Origin: Azospirillaceae bacterium
GTDB taxonomy: Bacteria; Pseudomonadota; Alphaproteobacteria; Azospirillales; Azospirillaceae
Length of the DNA stretch: 64,000 bases
Assembly (NCBI GenBank): GCA_035645145.1
Contig: DASQNC010000025.1
Span: 248,001 to 312,000, forward strand
Reading direction: 5' to 3'
The translations under genes were made by a program, and so were the position numbers. Numbering within the stretch: the first letter of the stretch is position 1; each line of letters starts with the position of its first letter. This document shows, piece by piece, positions 59,459 through 62,841 of the stretch. The notes under the pieces were generated by a model. That model was not told the origin of the DNA and made no database searches. It saw only the letters and a program-made list of their open reading frames with translations.

Positions 59459-60061
59459 ATGGCCTTCGAGCTTCCGCCGCTGCCCTATGCCCACGACGCG
59501 CTGGGACCCTACATGTCCAGGGAAACGCTCGAGTTCCACCACGACAAGCACCACCAGACCTATGTCACGGCGCTGAACAACCTCATCAAGGACACCCCGA
59601 TGGCCGGGATGAGCCTCGAGGAAGTGTGCAAGGCGTCGTACGGGGATCCGTCCAAGCAGGCCATCTTCAACAACGCCGGCCAGCACTGGAACCACACCCT
59701 GTTCTGGCCGTCGATGAAGAAGAACGGCGGCGGCGCCATGCCGTCGGAGTTGGAAAACCGGATCAAGAGCGACTTCGGATCGGTCGACGCGTTCAAGGAG
59801 GCCTTCACCCAGGCCGGCCTGACGCAGTTCGGCAGCGGCTGGGCCTGGCTGGTCGTCGACAACGGCAAGCTCACCTGCGCGAAGACGCCGAACGGCGAAA
59901 ACCCGATGGTTCAGGGCAAGCACGTCCTGCTCGGATGCGATGTGTGGGAGCACTCCTACTACATCGACTACCGCAACCGCCGGGCGGACTACCTGAAGGC
60001 CTTCCTCGACAATCTGGTGAACTGGGAATTCGTGGCCCAGCGCCTGGCCGCCGCCAAGTAA
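59459..60061 (+). CDS. sodB: Superoxide dismutase (Fe type)
   Basis: Converts superoxide to oxygen and hydrogen peroxide in the cytoplasm. The 200-residue product has the four metal ligands: His27 (EFHHDKHHQTY), His79 (GQHWNHTLFW), and Asp/His in CDVWEHSYYIDYRN. The Gln in AGQHWNH, together with length and overall wording, favours the iron form. AGAGGAA lies a few bases before the ATG. A strong terminator follows, so the gene is probably monocistronic. Confidence 0.96.
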   Translation: MAFELPPLPYAHDALGPYMSRETLEFHHDKHHQTYVTALNNLIKDTPMAGMSLEEVCKASYGDPSKQAIFNNAGQHWNHTLFWPSMKKNGGGAMPSELENRIKSDFGSVDAFKEAFTQAGLTQFGSGWAWLVVDNGKLTCAKTPNGENPMVQGKHVLLGCDVWEHSYYIDYRNRRADYLKAFLDNLVNWEFVAQRLAAAK

Positions 60062-60163: not shown

Positions 60164-60541
60164 TTAGGTCGGGAAAAGGGCGGCCGCGACCTTCCGACCC
60201 TCGGACAACAGGACATTGTACGTCCGGCAGGCGGCTCCCGTGTCCATCACGTCAACCACGATGCCCCCGTCGCGAAGGGTTTGACGCAGGACCCGCGGCA
60301 GCAACTGCATTCGCGGGCCACTGCCCAGCAACAGAACCTCCACCTCGTCCTTCCGGTCCAGGACCGGCCCGAAGTGGTCGGCCGCGAGCTGGGCGAAAGC
60401 GGCGGGTGCGGCCCAGGCCATCACATCGCCGGGAAACACGATCATGGCGTGCCGGTAGACCGTTCCCGACACCCGGAACAGGCCGGGGCCGTAGCTGTCG
60501 ATGACCTTGCGGTCGGCCGGAATGATGGGTGTGACGTCCAT
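60164..60541 (-). CDS. Mth938-like domain protein (NDUFAF3 homologue)
   Basis: A 125-residue single-domain protein of the Mth938/DUF498 family: IDSYGPGLFRVSGTVYRHAMIVFPG, VEVLLLGSG and VDVMDTGAACRTYNVLLSEGRKVAAALFP. The human relative NDUFAF3 helps assemble respiratory complex I, and in alphaproteobacteria the gene commonly sits by secD/secF. Here it follows secD by 72 bases on the same strand, with no secF between. A role in membrane-protein assembly is inferred, not shown. Confidence 0.88.
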   Translation of the reverse strand: MDVTPIIPADRKVIDSYGPGLFRVSGTVYRHAMIVFPGDVMAWAAPAAFAQLAADHFGPVLDRKDEVEVLLLGSGPRMQLLPRVLRQTLRDGGIVVDVMDTGAACRTYNVLLSEGRKVAAALFPT

Positions 60542-60613
60542 GTGCGTCTCCCTCCCGAATTGGCGGCTCCGAGGACGGCTTCAAAATGCCCCCCGCCCCC
60601 GGGTGCGCCCCCC

Positions 60614-62179
<1,566 letters not shown>

Positions 62180-62195: not shown

Positions 62196-62639
62196 TTACT
62201 GCTGCTTGCCGCGGCCGAAGACCTTGATCAGGCCCGAACCGACTTTGGAAGCCGGGGGCGCGGCGGGCGTCGGCGCGGCGGGTTCCGCCGCGGCATCGTC
62301 GCCCTTGCCGCCACCCTTGGCGGGCTCGGTCTTCGCCAGGACGGCCGAGATGGTCGGCTTCAGAATGCGCACGCGCACGCCTTCGGCGATCTCCACGGTC
62401 ACCTCGTCGTCGGCACCGACCTTCACGACGGAGCCGACGATGCCGCCGCCCGTCACCACGCGGTCGCCCCGCCGCAGTGCTTCCAGCATTGCCTTGTGCT
62501 CGCGCATCTTCTTCTGCTGCGGCCGCAGCAGAAGGAAATAGAAGACGACGAAGATCAGGAGCAGCGGCAGGAACTGCATGATCTCGACGCCCCCGGGGGC
62601 GGCACCGGCGGCCTGTGCATAGGCGGTGGATACCAACAT
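62196..62639 (-). CDS. yajC: Preprotein translocase subunit YajC
   Basis: Small inner-membrane accessory of SecDF. The 147-residue product has one transmembrane helix (about residues 20-40; LPLLLIFVVFYFLLLRPQQKK, the signature), then GDRVVTGGGIVGSVVKV. An unusually long Ala/Pro/Lys-rich C-terminal tail extends beyond the usual 110 residues. GGAGA lies about six bases before the ATG at 62639. It is the first gene of yajC-secD-Mth938. Confidence 0.94.
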   Translation of the reverse strand: MLVSTAYAQAAGAAPGGVEIMQFLPLLLIFVVFYFLLLRPQQKKMREHKAMLEALRRGDRVVTGGGIVGSVVKVGADDEVTVEIAEGVRVRILKPTISAVLAKTEPAKGGGKGDDAAAEPAAPTPAAPPASKVGSGLIKVFGRGKQQ

Positions 62640-62841
62640 TCTCGTCTCCAATGCGTGCGAACCCCGGCCTGGATATGGGGTCTGACGCTTGTCTCAAGGC
62701 GGGCGGACTATAGCCATCCGGGCCCCGCTTGCAAATGCAACGCGACGGCCCGCCCCATCCAGGCCGCGGTTGCCGGAGGCGCGGCCTGTGGCTACGGTCG
62801 CCGGACAACGCCGACGAAACCCGCCCAAAGTGCATCAACAG

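What the first reader, a model, noticed from the sequence alone, without database searches (positions are those of the whole stretch)
60542..60613. secF missing from the yajC-secD locus
SecD here is the separate, 521-residue form, not fused to SecF. In related genomes secF usually follows. Here only 72 bases separate secD from the Mth938-like gene. Either secF has moved elsewhere or this SecD works without it.
Basis: partly seen in the sequence, partly recalled or inferred. Interest (0 to 1): 0.5.

Follow-up and report, generated by a model that had tools for sequence, protein, structure and literature searches.

The report
SecF supplied by a stand-alone paralogue
In this bacterium the export-motor gene secF is missing from its usual place beside secD, apparently because an old, separately inherited secF elsewhere in the genome took over its job, an arrangement also seen in several other groups of bacteria.

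Summary
In detail: yajC-secD is followed, after 72 bases, by a DUF498/Mth938 gene, with no secF or detectable remnant between. One intact 313-aa SecF, the only one found, lies on another contig of the assembly. It probably did not simply move. In the SecF tree 27 of 27 stand-alone SecFs form one clade (careful subset 21 of 21, support 100/100) spanning this family, Micavibrio-like genomes and other alphaproteobacteria, with no in-operon member. Joining this family's stand-alone SecFs with a sister genus's in-operon SecF is rejected in the careful analysis (p 4e-8) but borderline in a quick one (p 0.055). One genuine stand-alone SecF (L256), left out, lies outside the clade. Five genomes carry both kinds of secF and one secD. 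Traces of a hemA-secF-exoD setting recur; here hemA is 13 kb away. Best reading: an old second secF took over and the operon copy was lost. Pairing of this SecD and SecF is inferred. Ordinary function, new evolutionary variant.

The parts
60614..62179 (-). secD, 521 aa, stand-alone (not fused to secF)
   Evidence: TIGR01129 490.6 bits; Pfam SecD_1st, SecDF_P1_head, SecD_SecF_C; D425 aligns to D340 of the SecDF structure 3AQP
62196..62651 (-). yajC, 151 aa, directly upstream of secD on the same strand
   Evidence: TIGR00739 92.9 bits, cut-off 44.2
60542..60613 (.). 72-base gap where secF stands in most relatives; no secF remnant detected
   Evidence: sequence read; no match to SecF; G007 keeps secF here
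60164..60541 (-). DUF498/Mth938-like gene, 125 aa, the usual gene after secF
   Evidence: PF04430 118.4 bits

Best explanation
The yajC-secD locus has lost its in-operon secF. SecD's partner is now a SecF encoded by a stand-alone gene at another locus (contig C36, about 72749-73690, - strand). That gene belongs to an old, separate SecF lineage that probably once sat beside hemA and exoD and existed next to the operon copy. With two SecFs present the operon copy was dispensable and was lost, here and apparently more than once in Alphaproteobacteria. SecD and the stand-alone SecF are expected to assemble in the membrane after separate translation into an ordinary SecDF(-YajC) complex that uses the proton gradient to help pull exported proteins across. 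Shown: absence at the locus; one SecD and one SecF found in the assembly; an intact SecF with the residues aligned to D637 and R671 of 3AQP; the separate clade; genomes with both copies. Inferred: the order of events, and physical pairing of this SecD with this SecF.
For: One SecF over cut-off in the assembly; the other SecD_SecF_C hits besides SecD lie in long frames (1056-1092 aa) of RND size. SecF tree: 27 of 27 stand-alone rows form one clade among 82 (97*); careful tree 21 of 21, 100/100, in all 200 bootstrap trees. Grouping this family's five stand-alone SecFs with genus g7's two in-operon SecFs is rejected, p 4e-8; own pairs in G162 and in G202+G383 rejected, p 2e-5 and 1e-3. Five genomes hold in-operon plus stand-alone secF and one secD: G106, G162, G202, G302, G383. 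Shared setting: hemA, secF and exoD together in G003, G009, G013; exoD directly after secF in G162; hemA within 1 kb of secF in G106 and G167; hemA 13 kb from secF on the same contig in G000. D206 and R240 kept in 27 of 27 stand-alone SecFs. dN/dS of the stand-alone gene 0.153 and 0.055 in two close pairs of other genomes.
Against: The same grouping test on the larger quick tree was borderline (p-AU 0.0548). One genuine stand-alone SecF (L256, G104) is outside the clade and was left out. In G000 secF is not directly next to hemA or exoD, and G202, G302, G383 and most others show none of these neighbours. G167, one of the two hemA-linked genomes outside the family, is rated 10% contaminated. 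G001, the one other genome of the genus, shows no secF; this fits an assembly gap but is not proven. In the SecD tree the Micavibrio-like SecDs nest among this family's (97/85*), which plain vertical descent does not predict. No experiment shows the pairing.
Confidence: 0.77

Rival explanations
1. Simple relocation: the operon's own secF moved to another place in an ancestor of these genera, with no second lineage involved.
For: secF is elsewhere and single in G000; one quick-tree test could not exclude it at 0.05 (p-AU 0.0548).
Against: The careful-tree test rejects it (p 4e-8); the stand-alone clade also contains Micavibrio-like and other genomes, and five genomes have both copies.
Confidence: 0.1
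2. The stand-alone secF spread between lineages by horizontal transfer and displaced in-operon secF, rather than being an old paralogue kept or lost by descent. Present-day function would be the same.
For: SecF of these genomes is one clade while their SecDs fall in two separate groups (united in 0 of 200 bootstrap trees); in-operon secF present or absent changes at least 6 times on the rpoB tree of 48 genomes, and stand-alone SecF present or absent 9 times on 52.
Against: Pieces of the same hemA/exoD/aminotransferase setting recur in distant genomes; SecD (95/93*) and rpoB (89, not starred) both put the Micavibrio-like group close to this family; no stand-alone-type SecF turned up on plasmids (51 records matched, best 48.8% identity).
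Confidence: 0.3
3. Tree artefact: SecFs that leave the operon evolve faster and are drawn together wrongly.
For: The clade has a long stem (0.24-0.46).
Against: Mixture model with no long end branches flagged in the SecF trees; shared gene neighbours do not depend on the tree; genomes with both copies exist.
Confidence: 0.07
4. SecD works without SecF, or an assembly error hides secF.
For: No secF in the 72-base gap.
Against: Intact secF in the same assembly; same arrangement in independent genomes, two of them with few contigs (G003 1, G013 4).
Confidence: 0.01

Closest known systems
Bacterial yajC-secD-secF operon and SecDF(YajC) complex (separate SecD and SecF chains in PDB 5MG3, recalled as E. 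coli; SecDF 3AQP, 5XAM)
   Same: Same two subunits, same domains and key charged residues; SecD and SecF as separate chains.
   Different: secF is not beside secD; it is a lone gene of a distinct SecF clade.
Second SecDF copies in Streptomyces coelicolor (PMC4139356; abstract, outline and passages seen) and Vibrio secD2-secF2 (PMC11470409; start of abstract in search listing only)
   Same: A second SecDF set beside the first; in Streptomyces of separate ancestry.
   Different: In what I saw of these papers a SecD+SecF set is doubled, adjacent, fused or in one operon; here only secF is doubled, and in this genome the operon copy is gone.
secDF2 behind ApdP arrest peptides in Alphaproteobacteria (PMC10987492; passages seen)
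   Same: Extra SecDF genes in alphaproteobacteria, Azospirillales included.
   Different: Those are secDF genes with an upstream regulatory peptide; the stand-alone secF has no secD beside it.

Membership tests
SecD (TIGR01129) | Score above curated cut-off over the full model | tested here: met
   490.6 vs 244.4 bits, model 1-397
SecF (TIGR00966) | C36 protein scores above cut-off over the full model | tested here: met
   310.4 vs 160 bits, model 1-278 of 279
SecDF proton-driven complex | Charged residues D340, D637, R671 of 3AQP conserved (their role is recalled) | tested here: met
   SecD D425; SecF D206 and R240
SecDF proton-driven complex | SecD and SecF bind each other and aid export | not testable with these tools
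   needs experiment
yajC-secD-secF operon | secF directly after secD | tested here: not met
   72-base gap to the DUF498 gene
Stand-alone SecF clade (defined here) | Falls in the clade of SecFs without adjacent secD | tested here: met
   97* in 82 rows; 100/100 in 53 rows
Stand-alone SecF clade (defined here) | hemA/exoD neighbourhood | tested here: inconclusive
   G000: hemA on the same contig 13 kb away; no exoD match in the 16 kb around secF

The most novel reading that the evidence does not exclude
Alphaproteobacteria carry an ancient second SecF, at home beside hemA and exoD, that shares one SecD with the operon SecF. Some cells therefore hold two alternative SecDF complexes with a common SecD, and in several lineages the stand-alone SecF has become the sole partner: a natural subunit swap inside the protein-export motor.
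Probability: 0.43. Interest if true: 0.55.

Novelty: new variant of a known kind. Interest (0 to 1): 0.4.

Why it matters
SecD and SecF are usually taken as one unit, encoded together and often fused. A lineage in which SecF comes from a separate paralogue, and genomes with two SecFs for one SecD, give natural material to ask whether SecF sets substrate or ion preference, whether joint translation of the pair matters, and how partners of a membrane motor are exchanged. It also warns that 'secF missing' in an operon can mean replacement, not loss.

Tried and rejected
The first rpoB tree was wrong: reversed open frames were picked for some GC-rich loci; it was discarded and redone by alignment to one RpoB. 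In one search two of 17 rows labelled 'alone' fell outside the clade: L116 is a contig-break artefact (the end of secD lies at its edge), L256 is a real stand-alone second SecF of G104. Both were left out, as were other rows dropped to save time (130 SecF rows were extracted, 100 went into, 82 into with new ones added, 53 into).

In one search G385, G134, G168 and G175 were labelled in-operon. G385 has no secF beside secD, though its SecF itself was not looked at; the other three carry stand-alone-type SecF and their secD was not looked for. The count was redone without G108, G134, G168 and G175 (6 changes in 48 genomes; such counts cannot tell gain from loss, and in-operon here includes this family's other, often fused, SecDF type; G003 and G058, which also carry such a fused copy, were counted as lacking in-operon secF). 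A second count, stand-alone SecF present or not, gave 9 changes in 52 rows, with G001 and G385 assumed to have it.

Adjacency in the 385-genome draw was checked only for the 30 best-matching loci (17 with secD beside secF, 13 without, G000 included), so the frequency of the stand-alone type in the class is not known. A search of plasmids for mobile copies gave none of this type (51 records, best 48.8%). Seven paper searches listed no report of a stand-alone SecF lineage; they cover only the open-licence library. No structure was predicted.

The family is called Azospirillaceae-like by inference and memory (G003's size recalls Rhodospirillum centenum; Azospirillum replicons matched at 48.5-48.8%, like genus g11). 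'Micavibrio-like' for G101, G102, G167, G182, G285, G373 and G448 rests on their place beside G099 in the rpoB tree.

Full report
What is there. The window holds yajC (62196-62651), secD (60614-62179) and a DUF498/Mth938-like gene (60164-60541), all on the minus strand, with 72 bases between the last two. The DUF498 start codon is preceded by GGAGGGAG, a fair ribosome-binding site by eye. No piece of secF was detected in the gap. In G007, of the same family, the order is yajC-secD-secF-mth938 with secF in this place.

Where secF is. The own-genome search with the SecF model found one full SecF, G000:C36:72818-73654 (-), 310.4 bits; the only other hit is the C-terminal domain of SecD itself. 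The Pfam search adds three weak hits in frames of 1056-1092 aa, the size of RND pumps. The ORF is L067:7750-8691, 313 aa, which is C36 72749-73690. The contig fits the genome: stretches on both sides of secF match G001, the one other genome of the genus, at 68-81% identity, and GC is 68.9% there against 67.8% in the window. The assembly is rated 2.99% contaminated. G001 shows no SecF. Its contig C206 ends at the point matching L067:6235, and C281 begins, by extrapolation, near L067:12900, so secF would fall in the unassembled stretch between them. That is an inference.

Relatives. In some searches the family has 59 genomes (counted by eye from the rows): 50 with secF next to or fused to secD, 6 without it beside secD (G000, G001, G003, G009, G013, G058), 3 not assessable from the rows. 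In G003, G009, G013 and G058 secF lies elsewhere, 65-69% identical to G000's. G003, G058 and G007 also carry a fused secDF of another lineage.

A separate SecF lineage. The four best, 62-64% identical, are from two Micavibrio MAGs and two unclassified ones and have no secD beside them. In all, 8 of 80 lack an adjacent secD: L148, L149, L150, L151, L156, L166, L176, L204. In 7 of these 8 genomes a secD over cut-off lies on another contig; in L204's (G108) none was found. The L166 genome (G106) has a normal secD-secF pair as well. A draw of 385 genomes of the class, of which only the 30 best loci were checked for neighbours, added G182, G448, G167, G373 and G285 (secF and secD on different contigs) and G162, G383, G202 and G302 (an in-operon secF plus a stand-alone one). 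G167 is rated 10% contaminated. A loose search of 19 secD loci of split genomes found no SecF beyond SecD's own C-terminal domain; in G107 and G105 the contig ends 230 and 739 bases after secD. In G162, G383, G202 and G302 one SecD each was found at E <= 1e-30, in G106 one over cut-off: five genomes with two SecFs and one SecD.

Trees. In the 100-row SecF tree 15 of 17 rows labelled stand-alone form a clade (99*). The two outside are L116, a mislabel from a contig end, and L256, a true stand-alone second SecF of G104 that groups with this family's other SecF type. With 82 rows, L116 and L256 left out, 27 of 27 form one clade (97*). In the careful 53-row tree 21 of 21 do, support 100/100 and all 200 bootstrap trees. 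Forcing this family's five stand-alone SecFs together with genus g7's two in-operon SecFs is rejected on the careful tree (lnL 108 lower, p 4e-8); so is pairing the two SecFs of G162 (p 2e-5) or those of G202 and G383 (p 1e-3). The first test on the 82-row quick tree gave lnL 56 lower and p 0.0548, so this point rests on the careful analysis. SecDs of the 18 split rows fall in two groups, never united in 200 bootstrap trees: one of 15 rows with this family, g7 and the Micavibrio-like genomes (95/93*), one with G062, G107, G207, G385 and G105 (96/89*). Inside the first, the Micavibrio-like SecDs join G000, G001 and G058 (97/85*) and leave g7 and G003, G009, G013 outside, which plain vertical descent does not predict. 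On the rpoB tree the presence of in-operon secF changes at least 6 times in 48 genomes (tree).

Neighbourhood. In G003, G009 and G013 the stand-alone secF lies between hemA (5-aminolevulinate synthase; the name is recalled, Pfam gives Aminotran_1_2) and exoD (PF06055), near a class III aminotransferase gene and an exonuclease-PAS gene; G058 keeps only the last. Outside the family exoD follows secF directly in G162, hemA lies within 1 kb of secF in G106 and G167, and the aminotransferase gene lies within 5 kb in G162 and G134. In G000 hemA is on the same contig, 13 kb from secF. G012 and G018 have exoD and hemA-aminotransferase in the same order with another gene between (255 aa, 94% identical in the two) and no secF there. 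The stand-alone gene thus seems to have an old address, much eroded; most of the 27 loci keep no trace of it.

Function. SecF of G000 aligns along its length to solved SecDF and SecF chains (3AQP, 5XAM, 5MG3). Positions D637 and R671 of 3AQP are D206 and R240 here, kept in 27 of 27 stand-alone SecFs; the other 55 rows have R in all and D in 54. D340 is D425 of SecD. That these residues are needed for proton-driven export is recalled, not read here. Two close pairs give dN/dS 0.153 (G202/G302) and 0.055 (G099/G100) for the stand-alone gene, against 0.082 for in-operon secF in the first pair; I had no such close pair for G000 itself. As one SecD and one SecF were found in G000, they most likely work together.

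Known context. Doubled SecDF sets are known in Streptomyces (PMC4139356; abstract, outline and passages seen) and Vibrio (PMC11470409; listing only), and secDF2 genes with upstream arrest peptides occur in alphaproteobacteria (PMC10987492; passages seen). Seven searches listed no report of a lone SecF lineage replacing the operon gene. The system is the known SecDF motor; the variant lies in where its SecF comes from.

Recounting changed some statements: the G012 gap and the absence of a secF remnant were tested, and 'six lineages' became 'several', because 6 changes of state are not six losses. I lowered two odds slightly (0.78 to 0.77, 0.45 to 0.43) for that and for the SecD nesting.

Noticed in passing
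L078 (G058), about 140 bases upstream of fused secDF; L115 (G098), just upstream of the fused frame: Stop-to-stop frames of 153 and 154 residues end in RAPP plus 2-3 residues, like the ApdP arrest peptides described upstream of secDF2; seen in 2 of 6 fused loci scanned.
   Followed up: partly
G020 (same family, rated 100% complete, 290 contigs): No SecF match and a best SecD match of only 2.3e-10, so secD and secF both seem absent from the assembly.
   Followed up: no
G104:C294:11266-11772 (L256): A second, stand-alone SecF that groups with this family's other SecF type, not with the stand-alone clade.
   Followed up: partly
L102 and L103 (G062): One genome with two stand-alone SecFs on different contigs and secD on a third.
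   Followed up: partly
window 59459-60061: The sodB beside the locus is 78-85% identical to those of G007 and G001 but only 45-47% to those of G003, G009 and G013, so it was probably replaced in one of the lineages.
   Followed up: no
L334, L335, L336, L337, L249, L251, L253, L255: Next to the stand-alone secF of 8 of 9 Micavibrio-like genomes lies a gene matching a type IV leader peptidase-like protein (PF01478 in L334; 30-42% identity in the others).
   Followed up: no
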